DNA from: Rhodocyclaceae bacterium
GTDB taxonomy: Bacteria > Pseudomonadota > Gammaproteobacteria > Burkholderiales > Rhodocyclaceae
Direction of reading: 5' to 3'
Assembly: GCA_004379165.1 (NCBI GenBank)
Contig: NKXK01000027.1
Location: 62,001 to 126,000 of the forward strand
Length of the DNA: 64,000 nucleotides
A program made the position numbers and the translations under genes. Shown piece after piece: positions 7,821 to 58,733 of the stretch. The first letter of the stretch is position 1; each line of letters opens with the position of its first letter. Below the pieces are notes generated by a model. The model saw nothing but the letters and a program-made list of their open reading frames with translations. It was not told the DNA's origin and searched no databases.

Positions 7821-7851
7821 GATTTTCGGCAATTTTTCGCGTTGACCGCAG
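7821..7851 (+). repeat. Copy of the GGGTTGACCGCAG repeat family
   Basis: An intergenic copy that reads GATTTTCGG, a T-run, then GCGTTGACCGCAG. It lies between the small 11-mer-repeat protein and the DUF218 gene. It has only the right arm of the full palindrome seen at 26090-26134. Confidence 0.75.
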
Positions 7852-7899
7852 ACGGCCGCTCACCGACACTTCCCGGGATTCCTGCTTGCCGCCGTCCAG

Positions 7900-8658
7900 A
7901 TGACGCTCGCCTTTCTCCTCAAAAACCTGCTCGGCACCCTGCTCCTGCCGCCGGCCAACGGCCTCCTGCTGCTCGCCGGAGCCGCCGCGCTGCGCCGTCG
8001 CCGCGGCGCTCTGGTGCTGGCCATGCTCGGCGGTGCCTTGCTGTTCGCACAGAGCCTGCCCATCGTCGCCCGCGCCCTGATCGCGCCGCTTGAAGCGCAG
8101 GCCGGCCCGGTATTCAGCAATGCGGAGGGTGCCGGTGCGGTGGTCATTCTTGGTAGCGGGGTCAATATTGATGCCGAGGAATATGGCGGCGACACCGCCA
8201 GCGAGCGCAGCCTTACCCGCTTGCGCTACGGCGTGCATGTCGCGCGGCAGACCGGGTTGCCCATCCTGGTCACTGGCGGCAAGCTGCCGCGCACAAGCAG
8301 AAGCGAGGCGGAGATCATGGCCGGCATCGCCGAGTCGGAATTCGGCATCGCCGTGCGCTGGCAGGAAGACCAATCGATGGACACCGCCGACAACGCCCGC
8401 CTGTCCGCGGCGATGCTCAAGGCAGAAGGCATCGAGCGCATTGTCCTCGTCACCCACGCCTTCCACATGCAACGCGCGCGCCAGCTGTTTGCCGCCGAGG
8501 GCCTGAGCGTCGTTGCCGCCCCCACCGATTTCAGGGGCAGGAATCGCCAGCCGCTGACTGTCTTCGATTTTCTGCCACAGCCGCGCGCGATCCAGAACAG
8601 CTATTACGCGCTACATGAATACATCGGGATCGCGTGGGCTTCGCTGCCCCGCCCCTGA
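7900..8658 (+). CDS. DUF218 (YdcF/ElyC-like) membrane-anchored protein
   Basis: A 252-residue protein with two N-terminal hydrophobic segments (about 3-30 and 37-52) followed by a soluble DUF218 domain. The domain contains VVILGSGVN near residue 81, the segment LPILVTGGKLP, the conserved acidic EAEIM, STDTADNA-like MDTADNARLSAAML, and VTHAFHMQRARQLFAAEGL. These are the family's conserved blocks. ElyC and SanA homologues act in the cell envelope, in peptidoglycan or enterobacterial common antigen maintenance, but the biochemical activity is unsettled. It is followed 20 bases later by an isochorismatase-fold gene on the same strand. Nothing ties it to phenylacetate metabolism, so it may be an unrelated insertion in the island. 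Confidence 0.85.
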   Translation: MTLAFLLKNLLGTLLLPPANGLLLLAGAAALRRRRGALVLAMLGGALLFAQSLPIVARALIAPLEAQAGPVFSNAEGAGAVVILGSGVNIDAEEYGGDTASERSLTRLRYGVHVARQTGLPILVTGGKLPRTSRSEAEIMAGIAESEFGIAVRWQEDQSMDTADNARLSAAMLKAEGIERIVLVTHAFHMQRARQLFAAEGLSVVAAPTDFRGRNRQPLTVFDFLPQPRAIQNSYYALHEYIGIAWASLPRP

Positions 8659-8678
8659 GTTTATTAACGGAGCCCACC

Positions 8679-9222: not shown

Positions 9223-9256
9223 CTGCGGTCAACCCGAAAAACCGCCGACAATCGGC
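9223..9256 (-). repeat. Copy of the GGGTTGACCGCAG repeat family
   Basis: On the plus strand it begins CTGCGGTCAACCCG, then an A-run and a GC-rich segment ending in ATCGGC. It fills most of the 60-base gap between two convergent genes, so it may help transcription stop. Confidence 0.8.
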
Positions 9257-9263
9257 CGATGCC

Positions 9264-10250
9264 TTACAGCGAGATCGCGGCCAGCGGATCGTCCTGCGGG
9301 AAGCGTTCGGCGTAAGCCGGGTCGAGCGCCGGCGTGCTGCCGTCGGCGAGCGTCAGCGTCGCTTCAAGATGCCGTTCGGCGGCCGGCAGCAGGCGACGGT
9401 AGAGATCCTTGCACAGCAGACGCGCCTTCTGGCCGGGCCAGTCGCCGGGCAGCAGCACGTCCGGCAGTTCCGGGTCACGCAATAGCAGGCGGCGGTAGTC
9501 GTGAATCAAAAGCAGGCGGACAAGGAAGGCATCCTCGGCGTCGACCTCGACGGCACGGTCGCGGCGCAGTTCGGCGAGGATGGGCAGGTAGGTGCTGACG
9601 AAGCCGGCGTACGCCTGCGCCAGTTCCTGCAGATCCCAGGCGCGGCGGACGAGATCGGCGTCGTTGGCCGACAGGCCGGAGCGTGAGTCGGCAGCGAGCA
9701 GGGGCATCAGGTGGTCGAGCTGTTCGCCCAGGCCTTCGGCGACCAGCGCATCGAAGGCGGCAGTCAGGTCGGCGCTGGGGTGCACGAAACACTCGTTACC
9801 CAAGGCGCCGAAGCCCTGCCAGAAGAGCGCGCGCCGGATCGCATCACGCGCTTTCGGCTCCAGATCACCAACCACGAGAATCAGCCGCCAGCGGCGATCC
9901 CAGATCGGCGCGTGCGAGGCGTAAATGTGGCGGGAGGCTTCGTCGAAACGGCGGCGGCCGGAATGGGTCAGCACGTAGTCGGCACGACGGCCGACGGTCT
10001 CGGTACGCAGCCATTCTTCCTTGGCCAGCCGGAACACCGAGGTACGCACCAGACGCTCGTTGAGTTCCAGCGGTTCAAGCAGGCGAATCAGGCTGCCCAG
10101 CCACACCCGACCGCCACGTGGCAGGATGGCATCGCCGAAGGCGGAAATGATCAGCGAGCCGGCCTGGACACGGCGTTGCTGACGAAAATCATCGAGGCGT
10201 TGCTTGATGGGCGCGATCACGGGGGGCAGCGGGGCAGGAAACCTGCGCAT
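9264..10250 (-). CDS. paaX: PaaX, phenylacetyl-CoA-responsive repressor
   Basis: A 328-residue protein with the PaaX layout: an N-terminal winged-helix region containing SLIISAFGDAILPRGGRVWLGSLIRLLEPLELNERLVRTSVFRLAKEEWLR, in which the DNA-reading helix precedes the basic segment, then the central PaaX domain (WRLILVVGDLEP, RRALFWQGFGALGNECFVHPS), and the C-terminal domain with FVSTYLPILAELRRD and LLIHDYRRLLLRDPELPDVLLPGDWPGQ. PaaX in other bacteria represses paa genes and is released by phenylacetyl-CoA. The start at ATG 10250 (MRRFPAP) is preferred to the longer open frame, which overlaps the reductase gene. It is third in a minus-strand unit after the diiron protein and its reductase, so it may be co-transcribed with them. 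Confidence 0.92.
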   Translation of the reverse strand: MRRFPAPLPPVIAPIKQRLDDFRQQRRVQAGSLIISAFGDAILPRGGRVWLGSLIRLLEPLELNERLVRTSVFRLAKEEWLRTETVGRRADYVLTHSGRRRFDEASRHIYASHAPIWDRRWRLILVVGDLEPKARDAIRRALFWQGFGALGNECFVHPSADLTAAFDALVAEGLGEQLDHLMPLLAADSRSGLSANDADLVRRAWDLQELAQAYAGFVSTYLPILAELRRDRAVEVDAEDAFLVRLLLIHDYRRLLLRDPELPDVLLPGDWPGQKARLLCKDLYRRLLPAAERHLEATLTLADGSTPALDPAYAERFPQDDPLAAISL

Positions 10251-10288
10251 GTTAGCGATTCCTGCCCCGGCTGGATAGCGAAGCGCGC

Positions 10289-11341
10289 TCAGAACGGCAA
10301 CTTGAACGGATCGTCTTCGCCGGCCTGCGCGATTTGCTGCGAGAAGAAGCCTTCGGTGTGGATCAGCTCGGGCTGGGCGCCGAGCTTCTTCACAGTCTCG
10401 ACGCAGGCATCGACAAAGGCCGTGCTGCCGGCGGCGAAGATGCTGTGTTTCGAGAGATCCGGGAAGAGCTGCGGCAGCACGGTGTCGATGCGACCAGACT
10501 GATAGCCTTCGGCCTGCTCGCGGGTGAGCGTGATCTTGTAGTCGAAATTGCGGTGCTTGGTGCGCCACCAGGCCATCATGCCCTGGCTGTAGACGTCCTC
10601 GCGGCTGCGCGCCGAAAAGACCAGATTGACTGGGCGCTTGTAGCCGCGACGCAGCGCCGCTTCGGCCAGCGCCAGAATCGGCGCCAGACCGGTGCCGGCG
10701 GCGAGGCAGAGCACCGGCGTATCGACTGAGGGATCGCCGATGAAGGTGCCGTAGGCGCCGGAAATCTTGACGTTGTCGCCGATACCGAGCTTGTCATGGA
10801 CCCAGGCACTGGTCTGGCCGTCATCCTGACGGGCGATCTGCAGCACGATCTCGCCATCCGGGCGCGGCGCGTTGGCAATCGAATAGGCGCGCGGCGGGAT
10901 GTTGTCGCGGGCGTTGCCCAGCGTCACGTACTGGCCGGGCCAGTAGCGGATCGGCTGGCCGACCGGACGCAGGCGCAGCTCGACGACACGGGCAGCGATC
11001 AGCCGCTTGTCGACAACGACAAACAGCGCATCCTCGCGCGGCGGGAAGAGCTTGGGCTTCGCATCCTCGGTGCCCCACTCGATGGTGAGCTCTTCCGAAA
11101 TCGGCTTGGCCATGCACATCAGGCCGAAGCCCTGCTTGCGCTCGTCCTGCGAGAGCGCCATGTCGAGCACCATGCCCTGATCGAACTGGCCCTGCGTGAC
11201 CTTGACCTTGCATTCGCCGCAAGCGCCGGCGCGGCAGTTGTTGGGCAGGGCATAACCTGCTTTTTCGAGTGCCATCAGCACGGTGTCGCCGTAGGCGCAG
11301 TCCACCGATTTGCCCGACGGTTGCATGATGATGCGAGCCAT
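10289..11341 (-). CDS. Ferredoxin-type [2Fe-2S] / FAD / NAD(P)H oxidoreductase
   Basis: A 350-residue electron-transfer protein with an N-terminal plant-type [2Fe-2S] domain (C36, C41, C44 in NNCRAGACGECK and C76 in LMCMAK), then an FAD domain with PRAYSIANAP, and a C-terminal NAD(P)H domain with GTGLAPILALAE. This domain order is that of MmoC/BenC-type reductases. It differs from PaaE, also present in this window, where the ferredoxin domain is C-terminal. It lies 178 bases downstream of the R2-like diiron gene on the same strand and 38 bases before paaX, so it most likely supplies electrons to that diiron protein. The open frame extends further upstream through a repeat, but ATG 11341 (MARIIMQPSG) starts the conserved domain. 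Confidence 0.9.
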   Translation of the reverse strand: MARIIMQPSGKSVDCAYGDTVLMALEKAGYALPNNCRAGACGECKVKVTQGQFDQGMVLDMALSQDERKQGFGLMCMAKPISEELTIEWGTEDAKPKLFPPREDALFVVVDKRLIAARVVELRLRPVGQPIRYWPGQYVTLGNARDNIPPRAYSIANAPRPDGEIVLQIARQDDGQTSAWVHDKLGIGDNVKISGAYGTFIGDPSVDTPVLCLAAGTGLAPILALAEAALRRGYKRPVNLVFSARSREDVYSQGMMAWWRTKHRNFDYKITLTREQAEGYQSGRIDTVLPQLFPDLSKHSIFAAGSTAFVDACVETVKKLGAQPELIHTEGFFSQQIAQAGEDDPFKLPF

Positions 11342-15508: not shown

Positions 15509-17032
15509 GTGAGCGCGCTCCCTTCTTCCGCCATCGTCGCCGTTGTCGGCACCGGCGCCATGGGCGCCGGCATCGCGCAGGTCGCGGCGCAGGCCGGCCA
15601 TGTCGTGCGCCTGCTCGACAACCGGCCGGGCGCCGCACAAAAGGCCATAGCCGGCATCCGCGCCCAGTTTGCCAAAATGGTCGAGAAATCCAGGTTGACG
15701 GCAGATGCCGCGCAAGCTGCCGGTGAACGCCTGGTCGCCGTCGAGTCGCTCGCAGAACTGGCCGGCAGCGCGCTGGTCGTCGAGGCCATCGTCGAAAATC
15801 TCGAGGCCAAGCAGAAGCTTTATGCCGACCTCGAAAGCATCGTCGGCGACGACTGCATTTTCGGCACCAACACCTCGTCGATTTCCGTCACCGCCATTGG
15901 CGCCGCACTCAAGCGTCCGGAACGCCTAGCCGGCCTGCACTTCTTCAATCCGGCACCGCTGATGGCGCTGGTCGAAATCGTCTCCGGCCTCGCCACCGAC
16001 AATGCCGTCGCCGAAACGCTGTTCGCCACCGCGGCCGCGTGGGGCAAGACGCCAGTGCACGCCAAATCGACGCCGGGTTTCATCGTCAATCGCGTCGCCC
16101 GTCCCTACTACGCCGAGGCCCTGCGTCTGGCGCAGGAAGGCGCTGCCGACTACGCCACCATCGACGCCGTGATGCGCGAAGCCGGCGGTTTCCGCATGGG
16201 GCCGTTCGAGCTGATGGACATGATCGGCCACGACGTCAATTTCGCCGTCACCAATTCCGTCTGGCGCGCCTTCTACAACGACCAGCGCTTCCTGCCGTCG
16301 CTGATCCAGCAGGAACTGGTCGACGCCGGCTTCTACGGCAAGAAGACCGGCCGTGGTTTCTACGATTACCGCGACGGCGCGGAAAAACCGGCTGCGCAGA
16401 CCGAAGCCGCACAAACACCGGCCGGCAAGATCACCGTCTTCGGCGAATCCACGTTGGCCGAGTCGCTGGTCGACCGCCTGCAGCACAGCAATCTGTCCTT
16501 TAGCCGCGCACCGGATACCGATGGCCGCGTTGCCGAAATCGGCCGCGCGGCGCTCTACCTCACAGACGGCCGCAGCGCGACGCAGCGGGCAGCGGAATCC
16601 GAGGTTGCCAACACCGTCCTCATCGACCTCGCCCTCGACTACGACAAGGCAACGCGGCTGGCCATCAGCGCTGCCGAGCAGTGCGAACCGGCAGCGCTGG
16701 CCTCGGCGACCGGCCTGCTGCAGGCCGCCGGCTTTGCCGTATCGCGCTTCATGGATGTGCCGGGGCTGGCGGTGATGCGCACCGTCGCCATGCTCGCCAA
16801 CGAAGCCGCCGATGCAGTCAATCAGGGCGTCTGCTCGGAAACTGCCGCCGACTCGGCGATGCGACTCGGCGTCAATTACCCGCTCGGGCCGCTGGCCTGG
16901 GCCGACCGCATTGGTGCCGAGAATGTCTGCAACGTGCTCGCCAATCTCGGCAACTGCTATGGCGAGGATCGCTACCGCATTTCGCCGCTGATCCAGCGCG
17001 CCGTCTTTGCCGGAAGGAATATCCATGACTGA
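15509..17032 (+). CDS. paaH: PaaH, 3-hydroxyadipyl-CoA dehydrogenase
   Basis: A 507-residue 3-hydroxyacyl-CoA dehydrogenase. The Rossmann nucleotide site is VAVVGTGAMGAGIAQVAAQAGH near the N-terminus, and the catalytic His and binding segment appear in ERLAGLHFFNPAPLMALVEIV. The dehydrogenase helical domain (GFIVNRVARPYYAEALRL, GPFELMDMIGHDVN) is followed by a second copy of the small domain (PGLAVMRTVAMLANEAADAV, NYPLGPLAWADRIG), which is the layout of PaaH-type enzymes. It oxidises 3-hydroxyadipyl-CoA with NAD+. It uses a GTG start at 15509, 3 bases after paaG. Its end overlaps the paaI start by 8 bases, so translation is probably coupled. Confidence 0.92.
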   Translation: MSALPSSAIVAVVGTGAMGAGIAQVAAQAGHVVRLLDNRPGAAQKAIAGIRAQFAKMVEKSRLTADAAQAAGERLVAVESLAELAGSALVVEAIVENLEAKQKLYADLESIVGDDCIFGTNTSSISVTAIGAALKRPERLAGLHFFNPAPLMALVEIVSGLATDNAVAETLFATAAAWGKTPVHAKSTPGFIVNRVARPYYAEALRLAQEGAADYATIDAVMREAGGFRMGPFELMDMIGHDVNFAVTNSVWRAFYNDQRFLPSLIQQELVDAGFYGKKTGRGFYDYRDGAEKPAAQTEAAQTPAGKITVFGESTLAESLVDRLQHSNLSFSRAPDTDGRVAEIGRAALYLTDGRSATQRAAESEVANTVLIDLALDYDKATRLAISAAEQCEPAALASATGLLQAAGFAVSRFMDVPGLAVMRTVAMLANEAADAVNQGVCSETAADSAMRLGVNYPLGPLAWADRIGAENVCNVLANLGNCYGEDRYRISPLIQRAVFAGRNIHD

Positions 17033-18848: not shown

Positions 18849-18900
18849 GTCTGCGGCAAACCCGGATTTTTGCCCGATTTCCGGGTTCACCGCAGCAGAC
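18849..18900. repeat. Full-length palindromic copy of the dispersed repeat, between paaK and paaJ
   Basis: The left arm GTCTGCGGCAAACCCGG (18849-18865) pairs with the right arm CCGGGTTCACCGCAGCAGAC (18881-18900) around a T-rich and CCCGATTT loop. It starts 4 bases after the paaK stop codon and ends 20 bases before paaJ. As RNA it should form a strong hairpin between the two genes, with no T-run of the classical terminator type. Confidence 0.9.
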
Positions 18901-26089: not shown

Positions 26090-26134
26090 CTACGGTCAAC
26101 GCGGAAAAACGACGAAAACCCGCGTCGACCGTAG
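26090..26134. repeat. Full-length palindromic copy of the dispersed repeat, after paaF
   Basis: CTACGGTCAACGCGG (26090-26104) pairs with CCGCGTCGACCGTAG (26120-26134) with one mismatch, enclosing an A-rich loop of 15 bases. It lies 16 bases after the paaF stop and 10 bases before the next start. Together with 18849-18900 it shows that the complete repeat is a palindrome of about 45-52 bases and that other copies are single arms. It could act as the operon's 3' hairpin. Confidence 0.9.
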
Positions 26135-28640: not shown

Positions 28641-29305
28641 CAGGGTGTCTTGTAGAGTTGGTGAAGATCAATATAGTCGAGAACGGCGTCGGGCAGCAAA
28701 TAGCGGGCAGAGAGGCCGTTGGCGAGCAGTTTGCGGATCTGCGTCGCGGAAATCGCGAGTTGGGTCATGGCGAAGGTGACGATGCTGCCAGCCGGGGCCA
28801 GCCCCAAGGCCGCCGGATCGGCAAGCCGCCGGTCGGCGAATTCGGTCGCCAGTTCGTGCGGCAGGCTGGCCGTTTCGACCGGGAAACCGGGACGGTGCGA
28901 GATGGCAATGTGCGCCAGCGCAAACAAGTCGCGCCAGCGGTGCCAGCTGGCCAGCCCGGCAAAGGCATCGGCGCCGACAAGCAGCACCAGCGGCTGTTGG
29001 TGCCCCAGTTCGCTGCGCAGGCGTTCCAGGGTATGCACGGTATAGCTGGGCGCCGCCGCCTCGACCTCGGCCGGATCGACCGAAAATCGGGCATTTTTTC
29101 GGGTTGACCGCAGCACCATCTCCAGACGCTGCTGCGCCGTCACCTGCGGCATGCCGCGATGCGGCGGCTGGCCGGCGGGAATCCAGCGCACCCCGGCGAG
29201 ACCGAGGTGATCGATGGCTTCCTCGGCCAGACGCAGGTGCCCGAAATGGATGGGGTCGAAGGTACCGCCGAAAAGGCCCAGCGGTCCCGGCAGCGAATCA
29301 GACAA
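28640..29305 (-). CDS. nadD: NadD, nicotinate-nucleotide adenylyltransferase
   Basis: A 221-residue NAD-biosynthetic enzyme. The nucleotidyltransferase motif GLFGGTFDPIHFGHLRLAEEA is at the start, and the C-terminal ISATQIRKLLANG motif is present. It makes deamido-NAD from nicotinate mononucleotide and ATP. The start is uncertain: a TTG at 29305 fits the usual length and overlaps the upstream gene's stop by 8 bases, whereas the open frame reaches ATG 29371 inside that upstream gene. An unusual stretch RSTRKNARFS (after QRLEMVL) is encoded exactly by a copy of the dispersed repeat (29079-29113) and replaces the expected helix sequence; the frame is intact, so the enzyme is probably functional. 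Confidence 0.9.
   Translation of the reverse strand: MSDSLPGPLGLFGGTFDPIHFGHLRLAEEAIDHLGLAGVRWIPAGQPPHRGMPQVTAQQRLEMVLRSTRKNARFSVDPAEVEAAAPSYTVHTLERLRSELGHQQPLVLLVGADAFAGLASWHRWRDLFALAHIAISHRPGFPVETASLPHELATEFADRRLADPAALGLAPAGSIVTFAMTQLAISATQIRKLLANGLSARYLLPDAVLDYIDLHQLYKTP
29079..29113 (+). repeat. Copy of the dispersed repeat inside nadD
   Basis: ACCGAAAATCGGGC, a T-run, then GGGTTGACCGCAG on the plus strand. This is the clearest single-arm copy. It is read on the minus strand in frame within nadD as LRSTRKNARFS, between the first Rossmann part and PSYTVHTLERL. Confidence 0.88.
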
Positions 29306-40968: not shown

Positions 40969-42113
40969 GCCGATTTTCGCCGTAAAACCGAGTCGACCGC
41001 AGCAACCACCTCATCGACCGAAATGTTGTCCATGCAGATCGGCTCGGCATACGGGCAGTTCTTCGACTGGCAGGGATCGCAGGTGCGCCACTTGCGGATG
41101 ACGATGTGGCGTTCCGGATCGTAACCGGGACCGGAACGTGCCGGATCGGAGACGGCAAACAGCGCCACGACCGGTGTTTCGACCGTCACCGCCAGATGCA
41201 TCGGCCCGGTATCACCGCTGACCAGCACTGCGGCACGACGCAGCAGGTCGGGGATGGCAAGCAGAGGCAGATCGCCTGCCGACGCCCAGGCGCGGCTGCC
41301 GCCGGTGACGGGCACAGCCGCCTCGATAGCGGCGGCAACTTCGCGGCACAGCGCCTGCTCGGCCGGCGAGCCGGTGACCACGAAACGCAATTCCGGATGG
41401 TGTGCGACCAGCGCCGTGGCCGCGGCGACGAAACGCCCGCGCGGCCAGCGCCGGCTCATGGTCGAGGCACCCGGCTGGAAAGCTACCAGTGGCGCCGATT
41501 GCCAGTCCCGTTGCACCAGTGCGTCCTGCAAGGCGCTTTCTCCCGCAGCATGCCGCGGCACCGTCATCCGCCGGGAAAATGGCTCACGGGCGCCGGCCAG
41601 TCGGGCCACCGCCAGCCGCTGGTCGATGCCATGACCAAGATCATCCCAGCTCACCACCGGCGTGCGGTTGTTCAGCAGGAAATTCCAGCGATTGTTGTTG
41701 GGCAGCTTGAAGATATGTCGGGCGCCGGAAAAGTAGGCCAGCGGCGTCGCCTGCGGCTCGTTTCCATGCAGGATCACGGCCAGATCGAAGTCCTTGAGCT
41801 GCCGGGCCACCCCGCCAAACCCGCGCCACTTGCCGTCGTAGGGAATCAGTTCATCGACACTGTCCAGGCCGGTGAACAGCGCCAGCAAGGACGGATGGAC
41901 CAGCAGCGTGAAGTGCGCCTGCGGATAGGTCTGGCGTAACGCAGCCAGCGCCGGCGTCGACAGCAGCGTGTCACCGAGCGCGGTACACGAAATGGCGAGA
42001 ATGCGCCGGATCGCCGGCGTGCCGAGTTCGCTGGAAGGGCGCGGTCGCTTGTCGAGCGCCCGCTTCAGGCGCAGCCAGCGATAGAGGACGGGTTCGCGCA
42101 GACGCAGGCGCAT
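40965..42113 (-). CDS. GT9 heptosyltransferase-family glycosyltransferase
   Basis: A 382-residue GT9 enzyme. The acceptor motif RRILAISCTALGDTLLSTPALAALRQTYPQAHFTLLVHPSLLALFTG is near residue 34; the donor region has LVSGDTGPMHLAVTVETPVVALFAVSDPARSGPGYDPE with the conserved DTGPMHLA block. The Cys-rich CDPCQSKNCPYAEPICMD is like other LPS heptosyltransferases. The start at ATG 42113 (MRLRLREPV) overlaps the upstream deacetylase stop codon (TGATG); the longer open frame is excluded. The last ten codons (AAVDSVLRRKSA) lie on a copy of the dispersed repeat (40971-41002), so the C-terminus appears shaped by it. Confidence 0.87.
   Translation of the reverse strand: MRLRLREPVLYRWLRLKRALDKRPRPSSELGTPAIRRILAISCTALGDTLLSTPALAALRQTYPQAHFTLLVHPSLLALFTGLDSVDELIPYDGKWRGFGGVARQLKDFDLAVILHGNEPQATPLAYFSGARHIFKLPNNNRWNFLLNNRTPVVSWDDLGHGIDQRLAVARLAGAREPFSRRMTVPRHAAGESALQDALVQRDWQSAPLVAFQPGASTMSRRWPRGRFVAAATALVAHHPELRFVVTGSPAEQALCREVAAAIEAAVPVTGGSRAWASAGDLPLLAIPDLLRRAAVLVSGDTGPMHLAVTVETPVVALFAVSDPARSGPGYDPERHIVIRKWRTCDPCQSKNCPYAEPICMDNISVDEVVAAVDSVLRRKSA
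40971..41002 (+). repeat. Copy of the dispersed repeat at a heptosyltransferase C-terminus
   Basis: CGATTTTCGCC, a short A-run, then GAGTCGACCGCAG. It spans the last codons of the minus-strand gene at 40965 and is read in frame as AAVDSVLRRKS. Divergence from the consensus is moderate. Confidence 0.65.
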
Positions 42114-42925: not shown

Positions 42926-44019
42926 CGCGCCTCCAGCAAACGCTGGTAAAGGCGCTCCATGCCCTCGGCCATCACTTCGCGGGCAAATTTTCGGCGCACG
43001 AATTCGCTGGCGTTGGCCCCCATGCCGCGGCGGTAGATCGGGTCAGCAAGCAGGCGGCAGATCGGCTCGATCAGTGCCTTGCCATCCTGTGCCGGCACCA
43101 GCAGTCCGGTCGTCCCATCCTGCACAACCTCGGGCACGCCATCGACGCGTGTCGCCACCGCCGGCAAGCCCATCGCGCCGGCCTCGATAAAAGCCGTGCC
43201 GAGCGCTTCCTGATGTGTCGGCAATACAAAGACGTCGAGCGAAGCCAGTACATTGGTCACATCGCGCCGCAGGCCGAGCAGGTGCACCTTGCCGGTCAGC
43301 CCTTCGGCGGCGATACGGGCCTTGAGGTTGTCCGTCTGCGGCCCGTCGCCAGCAAAGACGAAATGGGCATCGGGAAAACGGCGCAGCACCTCGGGTGCGG
43401 CGTCGAGAATCTCGGCATGCCCCTTCTTGGCGCGCAGGATGGCGACCGTGCCGACCAACAAGGCATCGGCCGGCAGGCCCAGTTCCTCGCGCAGGTTGCC
43501 GGCTACGGTCGACCGGGAATATCGGCCAAAATCGATACCGGTCGGAACGGTGGTAATGCCTTCGCGCGGCACGCCGGCCTCGACCAGATAGTTTTCAACA
43601 TGGCGACTCACCGTCACCACATGATCGGGCAGCACGCTGTAGGTAAAGCGCGAGGTAATCGGCAATGCCAGATGGCGGGTGCGCACGATGCGCGGCCGTC
43701 CAGACATGCTGCGCGCCGCCATACCCGCCAACTGCGTATCGCGGCCGCTGTGGGTGTTCAGAATATCGGCGCGAAAATCGCGAATTGCCCGGCGCAGACC
43801 GAGGATGCCCGGCACATCAATCGCACCGCGCATGTCGACGGTGTAGGTCGCGAAACCCTGTTCCTTCGCGCGATCAAGAATGCGGGCCCCGGGTCGGCCT
43901 ACGACCGCCAGTTCATGCCCACGCTCGCGCATCGACAGCAATTCGTTCAGCGTCCGGTTTTCCTGTCCGCCCCAGCCCTTCGACGACTCGGCATGGAGAA
44001 TGCGCAAGCCGGCCATCAC
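42922..44019 (-). CDS. GT4-family glycosyltransferase
   Basis: A 365-residue GT-B enzyme with LRILHAESSKGWGGQENRTLNELLSMRERGHELAVVGRPG as the acceptor side and VPTGIDFGRYSR, GTVAILRAKKGHAEIL, DVFVLPTHQEALGTAFIEAGAMGLPAVATRVDGVPEVV as the donor side, with the E-x7-E type block near 280. It acts in LPS core synthesis with its neighbours. The segment DFGRYSRSTVAGN is read from a copy of the dispersed repeat (43503-43534); the typical residues of this region in relatives are similar in length, so the protein should be intact. It overlaps msbA's end by 4 bases. Confidence 0.87.
   Translation of the reverse strand: MMAGLRILHAESSKGWGGQENRTLNELLSMRERGHELAVVGRPGARILDRAKEQGFATYTVDMRGAIDVPGILGLRRAIRDFRADILNTHSGRDTQLAGMAARSMSGRPRIVRTRHLALPITSRFTYSVLPDHVVTVSRHVENYLVEAGVPREGITTVPTGIDFGRYSRSTVAGNLREELGLPADALLVGTVAILRAKKGHAEILDAAPEVLRRFPDAHFVFAGDGPQTDNLKARIAAEGLTGKVHLLGLRRDVTNVLASLDVFVLPTHQEALGTAFIEAGAMGLPAVATRVDGVPEVVQDGTTGLLVPAQDGKALIEPICRLLADPIYRRGMGANASEFVRRKFAREVMAEGMERLYQRLLEAR
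43503..43534 (-). repeat. Diverged copy of the dispersed repeat inside a GT4 gene
   Basis: On the plus strand CTACGGTCGACCGGG, a short AT segment, then CGGCCAAAATCG. It is read in frame on the minus strand as DFGRYSRSTVA. The same frame and peptide type (DFG-FSG-TAA) appears in bluB and btuF. Confidence 0.6.
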
Positions 44020-45810: not shown

Positions 45811-46971
45811 TTATACCTTGCCGGCAGAGGCCTCACCGAGGCTTCGATACAGCGCCAGCAGCCGTTCCGCCATCGCTGGCAGCGTCAGATGCGCCACACT
45901 TTGCCGCGATGCCGCCCGCGCCCCGGCATCGCCAGCCAGTCCGGCGAGATCATCCAGCCGCTGCGCCAGTAGCGGCACATCGACGGCATCGCAGACCCAG
46001 CCATTGGCACCCGCCTGCACCCATTCCTGCGCACCGCAGGTGGTCGACGTGACGATCGGCAAGCCGCAGGCCAGCGCCTCCAGTACCGCATTCGGGCAGG
46101 GGTCGTACAAGGTCGGCAGCACAAAACCGTCGGCAGCGCCGTACCAGGGGCGCACATCCTTCAGCGGCCCGGTGAACAAAACCCGCCCGGCCAGCCCCAG
46201 CTTGTCAGCCAAGGCCCGCATCGCTTTCAGTTTGCGGTCAGCGCCGACAATCACGATCTGCGCGTCCTGCCGCTGCATTGCCGCCGCGGCACGCAGCAAC
46301 TGGGGCACGCCCTTGCGTTCGAAACCGCTGCCCACGAACAACAGCACCGGCACATCCGGAGGAATCCCCGCCGCTGCCCGCGTTGCCTGGCGGTACTCAT
46401 CGGCCAAGCCGGGATGAAACACCTCGGGATCGACCCCGTTGTAGATGACGTGCAGGCAGCTACGGTCAACCTGGAAAAAGCGCGAAATTTCATCGGCCAC
46501 CATCTGCGAATTGCAGATCACCGCCCGCAACGCCGGATGCTCGAACATCGCCCGTTCCGCCCCCAAGACGTAGCGATGGAAGGGCGACAGTGACTGCCCC
46601 AGCCGTGCCAGCGGCCCGAGCACCCGCGCCCGATGTTCCAGCCAGGCGGCATGCACACCGTCGCCGGCACGGAAGATCATGCAACCCGGAATCCGCTCGT
46701 GCGACTGGGTAATGTCGTAGTCACCGCGCGCCAGTTCCGCCTGCACGGCGGCAGCAAAACTCTTCTCGCGCGCCGCCCGGCCACCGGTCAAGCGCGAATA
46801 CGGCGGATCGCAGGTCACCTGCCGGAAACCTGCACGCGGCGCGCCGTCCCAGTTGCGGGTAATCAGCGTCACCTCGGCGCCTTCGGCGGCCAGCGCCCCG
46901 AGTGCGCGCTCGACGAAGCGTTCCGCACCGCCGAAGGGGTTGTAACGCTGGCGAACGATGGCGATCTTCAC
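45811..46971 (-). CDS. GT4-family (WaaG-like) glycosyltransferase
   Basis: A 386-residue GT-B enzyme resembling WaaG. It opens MKIAIVRQRYNPFGGAERFVERALGALAAEGAEVTLITR, has DITQSHERIPGCMIFRAGDGVHAAWL as the acceptor region, and the donor half VLLFVGSGFERKGVPQLLRA, FVLPTLYDPCPNAVLEALACGLPIVTSTTCGAQEW. It would add the first hexose (glucose-like) to the inner core heptose. The segment SRFFQVDRS is encoded by a copy of the dispersed repeat (46460-46490), in the loop just before LHVIYNGVDPEVF, so the loop sequence is unusual. It overlaps waaQ's end by 4 bases. Confidence 0.87.
   Translation of the reverse strand: MKIAIVRQRYNPFGGAERFVERALGALAAEGAEVTLITRNWDGAPRAGFRQVTCDPPYSRLTGGRAAREKSFAAAVQAELARGDYDITQSHERIPGCMIFRAGDGVHAAWLEHRARVLGPLARLGQSLSPFHRYVLGAERAMFEHPALRAVICNSQMVADEISRFFQVDRSCLHVIYNGVDPEVFHPGLADEYRQATRAAAGIPPDVPVLLFVGSGFERKGVPQLLRAAAAMQRQDAQIVIVGADRKLKAMRALADKLGLAGRVLFTGPLKDVRPWYGAADGFVLPTLYDPCPNAVLEALACGLPIVTSTTCGAQEWVQAGANGWVCDAVDVPLLAQRLDDLAGLAGDAGARAASRQSVAHLTLPAMAERLLALYRSLGEASAGKV
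46460..46490 (-). repeat. Copy of the dispersed repeat inside the WaaG-like gene
   Basis: CTACGGTCAACCTGG, an A-run, then GCGCGAAATTT on the plus strand. The minus-strand gene reads it in frame as ISRFFQVDRS. It is a close copy of the consensus. Confidence 0.82.
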
Positions 46972-48649: not shown

Positions 48650-48680
48650 CTACGGTGAACCTGGGAAATGGCCAAAAGCG
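48650..48680 (-). repeat. Diverged copy of the dispersed repeat between vapC and cobC
   Basis: CTACGGTGAACCTGG, then a weaker GAAATGGCCAAAAGCG on the plus strand, in the gap between vapC and cobC. The arm carries GTGAAC in place of GTCAAC. Confidence 0.6.
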
Positions 48681-50168: not shown

Positions 50169-51214
50169 TGCTCGGCGACGCCAGCGGACGCGAAACTGGC
50201 CATTTCATTGAGGAAACTGACGGCCGCCTGCAGTAGCGGGTAGGCGAGTGCGGCGCCTGTGCCTTCGCCCAGACGCAGGCCGAGGTCGAGCAGCGGCTCG
50301 GCGTTCATCGCCACCAGTTGGGCCTGCGCGCCGGGCTCGGCCGAACGGGTGCAGAAAACGCAGTAGTCGAGCACCGCCGGCTGCAGACGGGCGGCGACCA
50401 GTGCCGCCGAGCTGACAATGAAACCGTCGATCAGCAGCACCATCTTCGCTTCGGCAGCGGCCAGCATGGCACCCACCATGGTCGCGATCTCGAAGCCGCC
50501 AAATTCGGCAAGTACGTGCAGCGGCGCATCGCCGCCACCAGCCTGACGATAGCGGTTGAGCGCGGTTTCGAGCAACGCCCGTTTGCGATTGAGGCCGCTG
50601 TCGTCCAGTCCGGTGCCGCGGCCGACGCAATCGGCCAGCGAAACGCCGGTCAGGCAATGGGTGAGCAGCGAGGCCGACGCCGTGTTGCCGATGCCCATTT
50701 CGCCGAAGCCGACAACATTGCAGCCAGTAGCCGCCAGCCCGCGAATGAGTCCGGCGCCCTGCTCAATGGCTTGCTGGCATTGGTCGGAACCCATCGCCGG
50801 CTGCTCGATGTAGTTCGCCGTACCCGGCGCGACTTTCAGATCAATCAGCCCTTCGCGCGGCCCCCCGAAATCATGGGCAACGCCGGCATCGACCACACGC
50901 AGTGCCAGACCGTTCTGGCGGGCGAAGACATTGATCGCCGCGCCGCCAGCCAGGAAGTTCTCGACCATCTGCCAGGTGACATCCTGCGGAAAGGCAGACA
51001 CGCCGGCCTTGGCCGCGCCATGGTCGCCGGCAAAGACCAGCATTTGCGGATTGCTCAGTGTCGGCGTCAGCGACTGCTGGATCAGGCCGGCGGTTTTGGC
51101 CAGTTTTTCGAGTTGACCAAGGGCGCCGAGCGGCTTGGTCTTCTGGTCGATTTTCGCCTGCAGCGCGGCGGCAATTTGCTGATCGACGGGGTGGATATTG
51201 AAGGTTGAATGCAT
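50162..51214 (-). CDS. cobT: CobT, nicotinate-nucleotide-DMB phosphoribosyltransferase
   Basis: A 350-residue enzyme. It contains [87 protein letters not shown] and a C-terminal [29 protein letters not shown] with the catalytic Glu. It activates 5,6-dimethylbenzimidazole to alpha-ribazole-5'-phosphate. The bluB gene in this window makes that base, so the pathway is consistent. ATG 51214 (MHSTFNIHP) is preferred to the in-frame 51232. It is the first gene after a cobalamin riboswitch with a terminator, so cobT is expected to be shut off at high B12. Confidence 0.93.
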
Positions 51215-53317: not shown

Positions 53318-53351
53318 CTGCGGTCAACCTGAAAAAATGCCCGATTTCGGG
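53318..53351 (-). repeat. Copy of the dispersed repeat between the decayed gene and cobQ
   Basis: CTGCGGTCAACCTG, an A-run, then TGCCCGATTTCGGG on the plus strand, in the 72-base gap between convergent reading frames. It matches the loop of the full palindromes and the nadD copy closely. Confidence 0.85.
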
Positions 53352-53378: not shown

Positions 53379-54845
53379 TCAGATACCCGGCAGCCAGTCC
53401 CGCAGCTTGTCCCAGCGCAGCGCCGCCTCGACCGAGTCGGCCAGCCGGTCGATATCCGCTTCGCGGCGGGCGGCAAAGTCCAAGCTCTCGACCTCGCCGG
53501 CGCCCGCCCAACCGAGCAAGGTGCTCAGCGCTGCCGGATGGTCAAACAGGCCATGGCAATACGTGCCAAGTACCTGACCGTCGGCTGAAATTGCACCATC
53601 GCTGCGTCCGTCGCCCAGTTGCACAGCCGGGCGCGCCAAGCCGGCGCCATGTGTGACGCCCAGATGGATTTCATAGCCGGTCATCGCTGGATAGGCATCA
53701 AAATGCAAGTGACCACTGACATTCCGTAGCTGCTTCTCGCTCTCCAGCGTCGTTTCGACATCAAGAAAACCCAGACCGGGCGTTGAGCCGGCCGCGCCTT
53801 CGAGGCCGAGCGGATCGTGAATCGCCCGCCCCAGCATCTGGTAGCCACCGCACAAGCCAATGACCTTGCCGCCGTAGCGCAGATGGCGGGCGATGGCCTG
53901 ATCGCGGCCCTGCTCGCGCAGCCATTCGAGATCGGCACGCACCGCCTTGGAACCAGGCAGGACGATCAAGTCGGCGGGCGGCAGGGCCTCGCCGGGGCCG
54001 ATCCAGCGGAAATCGACTTCGGGGTGCAGGCGCAGCGGATCGAGGTCATTGTGGTTGGAAGTGCGCGGGTAGGCCGGCGCGATGATTTTCAATTTTGGCG
54101 CTTTTTTGCCGTCGACCGCAGCCGTCGCAATGGCATCCTCGGCATCGAGCATCAGGCCGTGCAGATAAGGCAGCACACCGAGCACCGGCTTGCCGGTGCG
54201 TTCCTCCAGCCAGGTCAGGCCGGATTCGAGCAGCGCAATGTCGCCACGGAAGCGGTTGATGACGAAACCGACGACACGCTTCTGCTCGGAGGGTGACAAC
54301 AATTCCAGCGTACCGACGAGGTGGGCGAAGACGCCCCCACGGTCGATGTCGGCGACGATGATCACCGGGCAGTCAACGGCTTCGGCAAAGCCCATGTTGG
54401 CGATGTCGCGGTCACGCAGGTTGATCTCGGCCGGCGAACCGGCGCCTTCGACAACCACGCAGTCGTAATCCGACGTCAGCCGCTGCCAGGATTCGAGCAC
54501 CGCACCCATCGCCCGCGGTTTGTAGGCGTGGTAAGCCTTGGCATCGAGATCAGTCGCCACCTTGCCGTGGATGATCACCTGCGCCCGCTTGTCCGTCGTT
54601 GGCTTGAGCAGCACCGGGTTGAAGTCGGTATGCGGCGCCAGTCCGCAGGCCAGCGCCTGCAAGGCCTGCGCCCGACCGATCTCGCCACCGTCGACCGTCA
54701 CCGCCGAATTGAGCGCCATGTTCTGCGGCTTGAACGGCGCCACGCGCACGCCACGGCGCTGCAGAATCCGGCACAGCGCCGCCACCAGCGTCGATTTTCC
54801 AGCATCGGAAGTGGTCCCCTGGATCATCAGTGAATTGCGTTTCAT
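53379..54845 (-). CDS. cobQ: CobQ, adenosylcobyric acid synthase
   Basis: A 488-residue amidotransferase. The ATP-binding part begins [42 protein letters not shown] and has [25 protein letters not shown]. The glutaminase half has the nucleophile Cys in [20 protein letters not shown] and the His in [13 protein letters not shown]. It amidates four carboxylates of adenosylcobyrinic diamide. ATG 54845 ([10 protein letters not shown]) fits family length; upstream open frame is in the riboswitch's antisense strand. The linker [12 protein letters not shown] is encoded by a copy of the dispersed repeat (54084-54121). Confidence 0.95.
54084..54121 (+). repeat. Copy of the dispersed repeat inside cobQ
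   Basis: GATTTTCAATTTTGGCGC, a T-run, then GCCGTCGACCGCAG on the plus strand. The minus-strand gene reads it in frame as [13 protein letters not shown], between the two halves of CobQ. It is the same frame as the heptosyltransferase copy at 40971-41002. Confidence 0.75.
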
Positions 54846-55073: not shown

Positions 55074-55128
55074 GAGACGTGATCCGGCCCCGTGGACGAG
55101 GGTCGTTGTTTTTCCAGAAGGGGAAACC

Positions 55129-55881
55129 ATGGAAAACCAGTCAGCACCGGCTGCACCGCCTGCCCAAAACGAACGGGCGGCGGTTTACCGCAACATCTTC
55201 AGCCGCCGTGATGTGCGCGGCCAGTTCCTGCCCGACCCGATCCCCGACGAGACGCTCGCCCGCATCCTGATGGCCGCCCACCATGCGCCCTCGGTCGGTT
55301 TCATGCAGCCGTGGAACTTCCTGCTCGTCCGTTCACCCGAGGTGAAACAGCGCGTCCATGCCGTCTTTGCCGAGGCCAACGCCGAGGCTGCGCGGATGTT
55401 TCCCGACGAGAAGCGGGTGTTGTATTCGCAGATGAAGCTGCAGGGCATCCTCGAATCGCCGCTCAATCTGTGCATCACCTGCGACCGTTCGCGCAGCGGG
55501 CCGGTGGTGCTCGGGCGTACGCACATGCCGAGCATGGATCTTTACAGCAGCGTCTGCGCCGTGCAGAACCTGTGGCTCGCAGCCCGCGCCGAAGGACTTG
55601 GGGTTGGCTGGGTCAGTATCTTTCATGAAAGCGCGCTGCAGGACGCGCTCGGCATCCCGCGCGAGATCGTGCCCATCGCCTACCTGTGCATCGGCTACGT
55701 CAGCGAATTCAAGGACCGGCCCGAGCTGGAAAAAGCCGGCTGGCTGCCGCGCCTGCCGATCAACGACCTGCTCTATGTCGACCATTGGGGCGCCGGCGAT
55801 TTTGGGCCGTTTTCCGGGTTGACCGCAGCACTGGCCGAAATGCAGGATGCGGCGCAGACGCGGGGCGTTTTCCCGGCATGA
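55129..55881 (+). CDS. bluB: BluB, 5,6-dimethylbenzimidazole synthase
   Basis: A 250-residue nitroreductase-fold enzyme. [42 protein letters not shown] is the FMN-binding opening of BluB, and [37 protein letters not shown] is the conserved second block. It makes the lower ligand base of B12 from FMN and O2. It is the first gene after the second riboswitch. Residues 224-234 ([12 protein letters not shown]) come from a copy of the dispersed repeat at 55798-55828; the gene ends shortly after. Its stop overlaps the cbiB start (ATGA). Confidence 0.93.
55798..55828 (+). repeat. Copy of the dispersed repeat inside bluB
   Basis: GATTTTGGGCCG, a T-run, then CCGGGTTGACCGCAG. It codes for [11 protein letters not shown] near the C-terminus of BluB. 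Confidence 0.85.
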
Positions 55882-56825
55882 ACGTGAGCGTAGCAATCAC
55901 CGGCTCGCTGGCGATGCCGCTGGCCGCGCTGACGGCCGTCATCCTCGACCGCCTGCTCGGCGAGCCGCGCCGTTTTCATCCGCTGGTCGGCTTTGGCAAT
56001 CTCGCTGCCGCCATCGAAAAACGCTTGAACCGGCGCAGTATCGCCAGCGGCCTGATCGGCTGGGCGCTGGCCGTCCTACCCTTGGTGGCGCTGGCCTTCG
56101 CGCTTCGGCCGCTGGCCCCCTTTGCCGTCGATGTCGCGCTGCTTTACTTCGCCCTCGGCGCGCAAAGCCTGGGCGAACACGCCGAAGCGGTGGCACGGCC
56201 GCTGGCCGCCGGCCAGCTCGACGAAGCACGGCAGCGTGTCGGCTGGATGGTGTCGCGCGACGCGACGCAACTCGACGAATCCGGCGTCGCAAAAGCTGGC
56301 ATGGAGTCGGTGCTGGAGAACGGCAATGACGCCATTTTCGGCGCGCTGTTCTGGTTCGCGCTACTCGGCGGCCCCGGCGCACTGCTTTTCCGGCTGGCCA
56401 ACACGCTGGATGCGATGTGGGGTTATCGCACCGAGCGCTACAACCTCTACGGCTGCTTCGCCGCCCGCTTCGACGACCTGCTCAACTGGCTGCCGGCGCG
56501 GCTCACTGCGCTGTCGTATGCGCTGCTCGGGCGTACCGGCAATGCGCTGGCCTGCTGGCGAGCTCAGGCGCCGGGCTGGGATAGCCCCAATGCCGGCCCG
56601 GTGATGGCTGCCGGCGCCGGCAGCCTCGGCGTACAGCTTGGCGGCGCGGCGATCTACCACGGTCAACTCGAACAACGCCCACCGATCGGCAACGGCCCGG
56701 CACCCGTGGCCGGCGATCTCGCCCGCGCCATTGTCCTCATCCAGCACAGCCTGTGGCTGTGGCTGGCTGCACTTTTCGCCCTCGCCCTGCTGGGTACCTG
56801 GCTGAACGGATCCATCCATGCTTGA
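55878..56825 (+). CDS. cbiB: CbiB/CobD, adenosylcobinamide-phosphate synthase
   Basis: A 315-residue integral membrane protein. It contains [112 protein letters not shown] and a glycine-rich C-terminal region. This is the CbiB family that attaches aminopropanol phosphate to cobyric acid. ATG 55878 overlaps the bluB stop. The open frame upstream (55686) is a shadow of bluB. Confidence 0.93.
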
Positions 56826-57810
56826 ACACGGCGGACGCCTGCGCGCTGCGGCGGCCCATTACGACATCCCGCTCGCCGACTGGCTCGACCTGTCCACCGG
56901 CATTAACCCGCATCCCTGGCCGGTACCGCCGCTGCCGGTCGAGGTCTGGCAGCGCCTGCCCGAGCCGGACGACGGCCTCGAAGCCGCCGCCGCGGCCTAC
57001 TACGGCAACGCCAACCTGCTGCCGGTAGCCGGCTCGCAGGCGGCGATCCAATGGCTGCCGGCGCTACTGCCGCGCGCCGCGGTGGCCTGCATTGCACCGC
57101 TGTACGCCGAGCACCCGCAGGCCTGGCAGCACGCCGGCCACAAGGTGCGCTTCCTGCAGAATGCAACCCTGCCACGGGCACTGGCCGTGGCCACGCCCTA
57201 TGTGCTGTTTTGCAACCCGAACAACCCCACCGCAGACCACCACCCGCGACAAATCATCCTCGAAGCAGCACAAACTCTGCACAAGCGCGGCGGGACGCTG
57301 ATCGTCGACGAAGCGTTCATCGACCCGACGCCGGAAGAGAGCGTCACCGCACTGGCCGGCACGGCGGATGCCCCGAACCTGATCGTGCTGCGCTCGCTCG
57401 GCAAATTCTTCGGCCTCGGCGGCGCGCGCGTCGGCTTCATTTTCGGCAAGCCCGAACTGTTGCAGCGGATGGCCGAAGCGATGGGACCGTGGGCCGTCAG
57501 CGGCCCGGCCCGCGCCGTCGCGCGCATGGCGCTTGCCGACCGCGACTGGCAGGCGGCAACCCGAAGTGAATTGCTGGCCACGGGCGCACGGCTGGGCGAG
57601 CTGCTGGCGGCTTACGGCGAGGTCAAACAAACGCCACTGTTCGCCACCATCAATTCGTCCGAAGCCGAAGTGCTGCACGAGCACCTGGCTCACCGCGGCA
57701 TCCTCACCCGCCGCTTCGAACAACAGCCGCTGCTGCGCTTCGGCATGCCGACTGGAGAAAGCGACTGGCAGCGACTGGCCGACGCCCTCGGCGACTGGAG
57801 CAAGACATGA
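56818..57810 (+). CDS. cobD: CobD-type L-threonine-O-3-phosphate decarboxylase
   Basis: A 330-residue PLP enzyme of fold type I. It has the N-terminal [17 protein letters not shown] opening of this family, the PLP region [31 protein letters not shown] and the Schiff-base Lys in [20 protein letters not shown]. It makes aminopropanol phosphate for CbiB. It overlaps cbiB by 8 bases and is followed by btuF with a 4-base overlap. The gene order bluB-cbiB-cobD-btuF makes one operon under the riboswitch. Confidence 0.92.
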
Positions 57811-58733
57811 ATTTTCGCGATTTTTCCGGGTTCACCGCAGCCCGAAGGAAGTCCCCTTGGGGGGCAGTTGCCCTGTTTTTCGCCCTGGCCCTGCCCGTCC
57901 ACGCCAACATCGTCCTCAAGGACGACACCGGCCGCGAGATCCGCCTCAAGGCGCCAGCCAAACGCATCGTCGCGCTGGCCCCGCACATCGCCGAAAACCT
58001 CTACGCCGCCGGTGCCGGTGACCGGCTGGTCGGCACCGTCGATTACAGCGACTACCCGCCCGCAGCCAAGGTCCTGCCCCGCGTCGGCGGCTATTCCCGC
58101 GTTGACCTCGAAGCCGTCGCCGCCCTCAAGCCCGACCTCGTGCTCGCCTGGGAGAGCGGCAACAACATGCCGCAGATCGACAAGCTGCGCGCCCTCGGCC
58201 TGACTGTGCATGTCTCGCAGCCAAACACCATGGACAGCATCGCCGACGATCTGGAACGGCTGGGTAAGCTGGCCGGCACCGAGGCCGCGGCCAACACCGC
58301 GGCCAACGCCTTCCGCCAACGACTTGCGACCCTGCGCCAGAGCAATACCGGCAAGCCGCCGGTCCGCACCTTCTACCAGATCTGGAAAACGCCCCTGATG
58401 ACCGTTGGCGGCCCCCAAATCATCAGCGATGCGATCAAGCTCTGCGGCGGTGAAAACATCTTCGGCCACCTCAAGCAGATGGCGCCGAACGCCACCGTTG
58501 AGGCCGTGCTCGAAGCCAACCCGGAAGCGATCATCGCCACCGGCATGGGCGACGCCAAGCCCGAATGGCTGCACGACTGGGACAAATGGACGCGGATGAC
58601 GGCCGTCGCCCGCGGCAACCTGTTTCACATCAACCCCGACATCATGCAGCGGCACACACCGCGCATTCTCGACGGCACCGAGAAACTCTGCGCCCATCTC
58701 GATGTCGCACGCAGCCGTCGATCCACCAAGTAA
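57807..58733 (+). CDS. btuF: BtuF-type periplasmic cobalamin-binding protein
   Basis: A 308-residue exported protein. The mature domain has KRIVALAPHIAENLYAAGAGDRLVGTVDYSDYPPAAKVLPRVGGYSRVDLEAVAALKPDLVLAWESGN, the helical-backbone metal-receptor fold of BtuF. The signal peptide is RRKSPWGAVALFFALALPVHA, but its first residues [12 protein letters not shown] are encoded by the dispersed repeat at 57810-57840, so the N-terminus was probably rebuilt by the repeat. It delivers B12 to a BtuCD-type importer, which is not in the window, or takes part in cobinamide salvage. It overlaps cobD by 4 bases. Confidence 0.9.
   Translation: MNFRDFSGFTAARRKSPWGAVALFFALALPVHANIVLKDDTGREIRLKAPAKRIVALAPHIAENLYAAGAGDRLVGTVDYSDYPPAAKVLPRVGGYSRVDLEAVAALKPDLVLAWESGNNMPQIDKLRALGLTVHVSQPNTMDSIADDLERLGKLAGTEAAANTAANAFRQRLATLRQSNTGKPPVRTFYQIWKTPLMTVGGPQIISDAIKLCGGENIFGHLKQMAPNATVEAVLEANPEAIIATGMGDAKPEWLHDWDKWTRMTAVARGNLFHINPDIMQRHTPRILDGTEKLCAHLDVARSRRSTK
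57810..57840 (+). repeat. Copy of the dispersed repeat at the btuF start
   Basis: AATTTTCGCGA, a T-run, then CCGGGTTCACCGCAG. It begins at the second codon of btuF and is translated [11 protein letters not shown], before the signal peptide. Confidence 0.85.

What the first reader, a model, noticed from the sequence alone, without database searches (positions are those of the whole stretch)
7821..57840. Family of dispersed ~31-52 base repeats ending in GGGTTGACCGCAG
Seen: at least 13 copies (7821-7851, 9223-9256, 18849-18900, 26090-26134, 29079-29113, 40971-41002, 43503-43534, 46460-46490, 48650-48680, 53318-53351, 54084-54121, 55798-55828, 57810-57840). The core is GATTTTCGG, a T-rich block, then GGGTTGACCGCAG. 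The copies at 18849 and 26090 are complete imperfect palindromes, and the others keep one arm plus the loop. They occur in both orientations, in intergenic gaps and within genes, over 50 kb of unrelated functions. I know of no named element with this sequence. A mobile palindromic element or a chromosome-wide binding or uptake signal are both possible.
Basis: seen in the sequence. Interest (0 to 1): 0.85.

Follow-up and report, generated by a model that had tools for sequence, protein, structure and literature searches.

The report
Likely DNA-uptake tags in Azonexus genomes
A relative of Azonexus bacteria carries hundreds of copies of a 30-letter tag built like the "self" tags that Haemophilus uses to pick its own DNA out of the surroundings; such tags have been reported from only two bacterial families, and this looks like a third.

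Summary
The repeat is real and genome-wide. Its unit is not a palindrome but a one-sided ~30-bp motif: core CTGCGGTSRAC followed by two A-tracts one helical turn apart. The core occurs 472 times in the 3.06-Mb genome against 11 for the reversed word. Copies in genes arose by substitution: 112 site-homologue comparisons, none with a gap of 6 residues or more. They are evenly spaced on the contig tested and enriched at gene 3' ends. Large inserts in comEC lack the spaced motif. The motif is abundant in 41 of 76 genomes of the Azonexus/Dechloromonas genus, as several dialects, and at background level in sampled genomes of the rest of the family and order. These are traits of Pasteurellaceae uptake signal sequences (USS), and the core shares TGCGGTCAA with the published extended Haemophilus USS. 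Best reading: a third lineage of DNA-uptake sequences. Uptake and the receptor are untested. REP/MITE-type mobile elements are rejected. Against: comEC integrity and a ComP-like pilin do not separate carriers from non-carriers.

The parts
2762..2791 (+). motif copy (core + A-tracts), score 26.0, in a called gene
7822..7851 (-). motif copy, score 44.3, intergenic by my gene calls
9223..9252 (+). motif copy, score 38.9, intergenic, behind the end of paaX (9264-10568, - strand)
15675..15704 (-). degenerate motif copy, score 26.0
18851..18880 (+). motif copy, left arm of inverted pair behind the paaK stop codon (18844), score 29.0
18866..18895 (-). motif copy, right arm of the same inverted pair, score 44.9; the pair folds as RNA (z -3.7)
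26090..26119 (+). motif copy, left arm of inverted pair 16 bp behind an enoyl-CoA hydratase stop codon (26074), score 38.2
26105..26134 (-). motif copy, right arm of the same inverted pair, score 20.5; the pair folds as RNA (z -4.1)
29084..29113 (-). motif copy inside a gene, score 40.0; relatives carry their dialects at the same codons, without gaps
34034..34063 (+). weak copy inside polA, score 18.2; core-like words at the same place in 10 named relatives
40973..41002 (-). motif copy in a gene, score 35.5
43503..43532 (+). motif copy in a glycosyltransferase-like gene, score 40.8, gapless against the homologues shown
46460..46489 (+). motif copy in a glycosyltransferase gene, score 39.2
48650..48679 (+). 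motif copy, intergenic, score 25.9
51093..51122 (-). degenerate motif copy in a gene, score 26.8
53318..53347 (+). motif copy, intergenic by my gene calls, score 42.0
54092..54121 (-). motif copy in the cobyrinate-synthase-like gene (CbiA/GATase_3), score 36.4
55799..55828 (-). motif copy in bluB, score 44.1
57811..57840 (-). motif copy at the overlapping gene junction 57807-57810, score 39.0

Best explanation
The repeats are an uptake signal sequence, a self-recognition tag for natural transformation, in an Azonexus/Dechloromonas-type betaproteobacterium. Each unit is a recognition core (CTGCGGTSRAC here, CGGTCRAC common to the dialects) plus two A-tracts on its 3' side, about 15-18 and 25-29 bases from the core start. 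Proposed mechanism: a minor pilin of a type IV pilus binds the core. The A-tracts ease bending or kinking as pilus retraction pulls DNA through the secretin, and ComEC and DprA carry it on. DNA with the tag is taken up preferentially and recombines, so chance matches created by mutation spread through the chromosome by biased transformation wherever the protein tolerates them. Dialects arise when receptor specificity drifts, and copies decay when the system is lost. SHOWN here: sequence, architecture, abundance, in-place origin, even spacing on one contig, 3'-end and inverted-pair placement, dialects, absence of the spaced motif from three large inserts, presence of comEC, dprA and minor-pilin genes. 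INFERRED: uptake preference, the receptor, the role of the A-tracts, spread by transformation, decay after loss.
For: Architecture: at 94 CTRCGGTSRAC sites, chosen by core alone, A+T is 0.88-0.98 at +15..+18 and 0.82-0.98 at +25..+29, and 0.13-0.35 at +20..+24. Abundance. Not codon usage: 72 sites at score 22 or more in CDS against a mean of 6.1 (maximum 12) in 20 synonymous shuffles. Substitution, not insertion. Spacing CV 0.66 on C11, reached by 0 of 5000 random placings. At score 22 or more, 80 of 130 sites touch genes although 91% of the sample is coding; in the lenient set convergent and 3' gaps are preferred over divergent ones. Inserts in comEC of three carriers: 0 spaced sites in 125.6 kb against 26 in 114.4 kb of flanks. 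Dialects. Confined to one genus among those sampled. Machinery: intact comEC, dprA, minor-pilin operon with a ComP_DUS-family pilin and a FimT/GspH pilin. Published USS share these traits, and extended Hin-USS AAAGTGCGGTCAATTTT contains TGCGGTCAA.
Against: No uptake or binding data. 35 of 76 genus genomes nearly lack the spaced motif, although dprA is found in 75 of 76, a ComEC match in 75 of 76 and a ComP_DUS pilin in 70 of 76. By my reading, comEC is in pieces in 7 of 34 carriers and 6 of 22 non-carriers among genomes at least 90% complete, so integrity does not predict the motif. Density (~0.27 per kb at score 22 or more) is below the ~1 per kb quoted for known USS/DUS, and the consensus tolerates more letters. 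Other dialects have ACGG rather than GCGG. The tight link between A-tracts and core could also suit an intracellular DNA-binding protein.
Confidence: 0.84

Rival explanations
1. A chromosome-organising or recombination motif (nucleoid protein, Chi/KOPS-like, macrodomain site) bound inside the cell, selected for even coverage.
For: Even spacing on C11, hundreds of copies, long bipartite motif with A-tracts.
Against: No overall strand bias: CTGCGGTSRAC 252 forward and 220 reverse, though contigs are not ordered; the C11 excess (58 to 33) goes with its gene-strand excess. Dialects differ between congeners and about half the genus nearly lacks the spaced motif, odd for a core chromosome function. 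Core and layout match USS.
Confidence: 0.1
2. A mobile palindromic element (REP/BIME or MITE) spread by a RAYT or other transposase.
For: Five tight inverted pairs, two in the window that fold well; intergenic enrichment.
Against: No gap of 6 or more residues in 112 site-homologue comparisons, and 5 with any gap, the same rate as 26 of 560 control windows (some of these homologues carry the motif themselves). No gaps at six polA places in up to 11 rows with a core, or in the untruncated rows without. Two tested single copies do not fold beyond chance.
Confidence: 0.02
3. A transcription-termination or mRNA 3'-end motif, with copies in genes as by-products.
For: Intergenic sites prefer 3' ends: 28 nearer the 3' end against 10, convergent gaps rich, divergent gaps poor; the window's inverted pairs lie behind stop codons.
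Against: 80 of 130 sites at score 22 or more touch genes, in both orientations; two tested single copies have no fold; dialect turnover unexplained. DUS/USS are themselves often used in terminators, so this is more a secondary use.
Confidence: 0.03

Closest known systems
Uptake signal sequence (USS) of Pasteurellaceae, Hin and Apl types
   Same: Core with GCGGT (TGCGGTCAA shared with extended Hin-USS, GCGGTCAA with extended Apl-USS); two AT-rich segments on the 3' side about one turn apart; origin by substitution; most copies in genes with non-coding enrichment; regular spacing; close inverted pairs; dialects.
   Different: Betaproteobacterium; sampled G+C 61%; first base(s) and A-tract offset differ (tracts a few bp further out, my rough alignment); letters after GCGGT are C or G, then A or G; lower density; several dialects in one genus, some with ACGG and some with a weak inner tract; uptake not tested; the Pasteurellaceae receptor candidate PpdA/ComN was not looked for by sequence.
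DNA uptake sequence (DUS) of Neisseriaceae
   Same: Dialects between species, inverted pairs in terminators, ComP-family minor pilin present.
   Different: DUS is GCCGTCTGAA-like with an invariant CTG and no A-tracts; here the letters CTG are the part that varies between dialects.
REP/BIME and MITE repeats
   Same: Dispersed, both orientations, some palindromic pairs.
   Different: No insertion gaps; the unit is not palindromic; most copies touch genes.

Membership tests
Pasteurellaceae-type USS | Hundreds of strong-consensus core copies, far above chance | tested here: met
   density lower than the ~1 per kb
Pasteurellaceae-type USS | Two AT-rich segments 3' of the core, about one turn apart | tested here: met
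   for the window's genome (centres ~10.5 bp apart; 12 in H. influenzae); in G032, G030 and G086 the inner tract is weak
Pasteurellaceae-type USS | Inner core GCGG conserved | tested here: inconclusive
   GCGG in about 81% of 94 sites of the window's genome, but ACGG prevails in G070/G084-type dialects
Pasteurellaceae-type USS | Arises by substitution, not insertion | tested here: met
Pasteurellaceae-type USS | Spacing more regular than random; inverted pairs; non-coding enrichment | tested here: met
   (spacing tested on one contig, C11)
Pasteurellaceae-type USS | Competence machinery encoded | tested here: met
   comEC, dprA and minor pilins in G000; ComEA, PilQ and PilT not searched
Pasteurellaceae-type USS | Promotes DNA uptake by competent cells | not testable with these tools
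   needs a wet experiment
Neisseriaceae DUS | GCCGTCTGAA-like core with invariant CTG and no A-tracts | tested here: not met
REP/MITE | Present as an insertion relative to empty homologous sites | tested here: not met
REP/MITE | Linked RAYT or transposase | not tested
   no search was made
Chi/KOPS-like skewed motif | Strong strand bias along the replichore | tested here: inconclusive
   no overall bias, but contigs are not ordered

The most novel reading that the evidence does not exclude
The uptake-recognition system of this genus and that of Pasteurellaceae are one system: a USS-reading module inherited from a common ancestor or moved between gamma- and betaproteobacteria, so that TGCGGTCAA plus paired A-tracts is a shared ancestral code, which has since split into several dialects within a single genus.
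Probability: 0.22. Interest if true: 0.93.

Novelty: new variant of a known kind. Interest (0 to 1): 0.85.

Why it matters
A 2025 paper states that only Neisseriaceae and Pasteurellaceae are known to mark their DNA for uptake (PMC12616744, passage), as a 2006 paper did before (PMC1626085, passage). A third lineage with several dialects in one genus would allow tests of how uptake sequences arise, drift and vanish, and of which pilin reads them, by comparing close species. It could also give a practical tag for transforming Dechloromonas/Azonexus, which are studied for perchlorate and nitrate reduction (recalled). The near-identity of the core to the Haemophilus USS asks whether the code is convergent or shared.

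Tried and rejected
Alphaproteobacterial origin was my first guess and was wrong. A G000-type core alone made several congeners look empty that have other dialects. De novo refinement drifted into codon-like consensuses in G066 and G088; those were discarded, and these genomes count as non-carriers. The reversed-sequence control is too lenient for coding DNA (0 at score 22, but a mean of 6.1 in synonymous shuffles); the lenient set of 159 sites is used only where said. comEC integrity as explanation of presence: no clear difference (7 of 34 against 6 of 22; my reading, no script; pieces on different contigs counted as broken). ComP_DUS presence: 70 of 76 genomes, not discriminating. Minor-pilin operon types: no presence/absence rule seen among 19 genomes. 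Structure models of the FimT-like (pLDDT 86) and ComP-like (pLDDT 91) pilins give FimU/GspH and PilV/PilE neighbours, ComP only weakly (E 0.03), so no receptor claim. polA tree of 27 rows (4 short loci of the 31 rows left out): 8 label changes, hardly fewer than shuffled labels (mean 9.2; 149 of 500 as low), forced minimum 3; polA itself carries sites. Literature: letters of the motif in 84 papers, 15 listed, none relevant by title; uptake sequences with Dechloromonas (94 papers, 20 listed), Rhodocyclaceae (117, 15 listed), Azonexus/Dechloromonas (331, 20 listed), betaproteobacteria (55, 20 listed), Alphaproteobacteria (28, 25 listed) and Rhodocyclales (0): nothing on this motif among those listed. 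Most subscription papers and preprints are not held.
Full report
WHAT THE GENOME IS. The window is 62001-126000 of contig C21 of a 3.06-Mb, 44-contig genome. The best polA matches among 80 named loci are Azonexus and Dechloromonas species, such as A. fungiphilus 87%, A. hydrophilus 86-87% and D. agitata 85%, so this is an Azonexaceae-type betaproteobacterium.

OBSERVATION. TTGACCGCAG occurs 206 times genome-wide against 15 for the reversed word; CTGCGGTSRAC 472 against 11. A matrix refined on 484 kb of this genome finds 130 sites at score 22 or more, 0 in reversed sequence; 18 are in the window. In called genes there are 72 such sites against a mean of 6.1 (maximum 12) in 20 synonymous shuffles, so codon usage does not explain them. 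The matrix was fitted to the same DNA; the fixed-word counts in whole genomes are free of that.

ANATOMY. Aligning 94 sites by core alone exposes two A/T peaks, +15..+18 and +25..+29, with G+C-rich DNA between. The unit is one-sided. The two window 'palindromes' are pairs of units with cores outermost, overlapping by 15 bp. In the lenient set of 159 sites in 484 kb there are five such pairs with 14-15 bp offset, four with cores outermost and one with cores inward, and one wider pair (69 bp). The window pairs lie 7 and 16 bp behind stop codons and fold as RNA (z -3.7 and -4.1), while two tested single copies do not (z 1.3 and -0.01). Single-base departures from CTGCGGTCAAC pile up on three tolerated letters (28, 14 and 9 copies) against 0-4 for each of the other 30 words.

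DISTRIBUTION. Of 130 sites at score 22 or more, 80 touch called genes and 50 are intergenic, in DNA that is 91% coding by my simple gene calls; H. influenzae has 65% in genes. In the lenient set, 38 intergenic sites lie between co-directional genes, 28 nearer the 3' end and 10 nearer the 5' end; 10 lie in 4.7 kb of convergent gaps and 5 in 11.2 kb of divergent gaps. On C11 (280 kb, lenient set, pairs merged) the spacing CV is 0.66 against 0.98 at random (0 of 5000 as low). Preferred reading frames exist.

ORIGIN BY SUBSTITUTION. In polA of 30 named relatives plus the window, core-like words on either strand occur at six places in 2 to 11 rows each. The printed alignments at these places have no gaps except for one truncated row, and the change sometimes alters several amino acids. 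For 73 coding sites in 69 genes of this genome, 26 sites had homologues in the loci I hold, giving 112 comparisons: 5 with any gap, 0 with a gap of 6 residues or more; controls 26 of 560 and 0. Only alignments spanning the site were counted, and some homologues are themselves carriers; the printed examples include non-carriers such as D. agitata. This follows the test by which USS were shown not to be insertions (PMC1626085, section 7 read).

DIALECTS AND RANGE. Stretches of 80-120 kb per congener gave related motifs with different 5' ends: TTGCGGTCGAC, CYACGGTCAAC, TCACGGTCGAC and others, sharing CGGTCRAC and a downstream A/T tract. Whole-genome counts agree: CYACGGTCAAC 471-639 in G070, G073, G074, G075, G002, G084, G085 and G090 but 64 in G000; TTGCGGTCGAC 436 in G020 and 432 in G008 but 32 in G000. 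Dialects are not exclusive: G008 also has 519 CTGCGGTSRAC. The fixed pattern CGGTCRAC-N15-AAAT gives 40 or more hits in 41 of 76 genus genomes and under 20 in the other 35, controls 0-3. In 373 sampled family genomes outside the genus it gives 0-5, and in 386 sampled genomes of other families of the order 0-8, the highest with a control of 3. A different, unrelated tag in those groups was not looked for. On a polA tree of 27 rows the carrier state needs 8 changes, at least 3 forced by well-supported branches; that is not clearly fewer than for shuffled labels.

FOREIGN DNA LACKS IT. In carriers G084, G067 and G002, comEC is split by 34-49 kb inserts. With the spaced pattern CGGTCRAC-N14-W5 these hold 0 sites in 125.6 kb against 26 in 114.4 kb of flanks; the dialect cores without tracts occur 2 times inside (both in G084) and 28 times in the flanks. 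G005 and G060 were also counted (0 and 2 spaced in the inserts, 0 and 0 in the flanks) but are uninformative, having little or no motif. The inserts have lower G+C than the flanks, which could lower the core count somewhat. Two of the three inserts carry Tn7-like genes; the third was not examined.

MACHINERY. G000 has an intact comEC (380 bits), dprA (268 bits) and a minor-pilin operon: a pilin over the cut-off of Pfam ComP_DUS (44.5 bits), a FimT/GspH pilin, PilW and others. ComEA, PilQ and PilT were not searched. ComP_DUS also matches pilins in 70 of 76 congeners, carriers or not, and proteins that sources call PilE, so it is a lead only. What separates carriers from non-carriers is unknown.

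COMPARISON. [quoted passage not shown] The G000 core CTGCGGTCAAC shares nine letters with the first and eight with the second, with A/T tracts on the same side. By my own rough estimate, from no call, a chance nine-letter overlap has a probability of order 1e-3 or less. PMC1626085 (passages and section 7) lists the traits of USS and DUS: about one per kb, no orientation bias, regular spacing, inverted pairs, non-coding preference, AT segments 12 bp apart in Hin-type USS. PMC7811141 (passages) gives GCGG as the essential inner core. PMC3630211, PMC13020248, PMC1852404 and PMC12236230 were seen as passages. Here the layout is the same, the density lower and the consensus looser, and some dialects have ACGG. 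I therefore say it works like a USS, and do not file it as a proven USS: uptake is untested.

VERDICT. A third lineage of self-DNA uptake tags is by far the best fit to the evidence; it is convergent with, or related to, the Pasteurellaceae code.

Noticed in passing
G084:C1:2720418-2763735 (L257-L259), G067:C22:222975-271519 (L261-L263); also splits in G002, G005, G018, G060, G088, G098, G099, G029: comEC matches are recurrently split into pieces kilobases to tens of kb apart on one contig, at a few recurring positions (profile ~146, ~161-166, ~590). Two inserts carry Tn7-like TnsB/TniB/TniQ genes, one with a TnsD match: comEC may be a Tn7-like target, which would disable transformation.
   Followed up: partly
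L252, L253, L254, L255 (viral contigs): Four IMG/VR contigs hold one full G000-type motif each; host and virus status not examined.
   Followed up: no
window 54904-55088 (+) and 51292-51478 (-): Two cobalamin riboswitches in the cobalamin gene region.
   Followed up: no
L173 (G032:C1:1300001-1320000), 10603, 15100 and 19597: Matches with identical sequence recur every 4497 bp, suggesting a long repetitive gene.
   Followed up: no
G069, G062, G068, G096, G083: Low but above-control spaced-motif counts (10-19, controls 0-2), perhaps decaying remnants of a lost uptake system.
   Followed up: no
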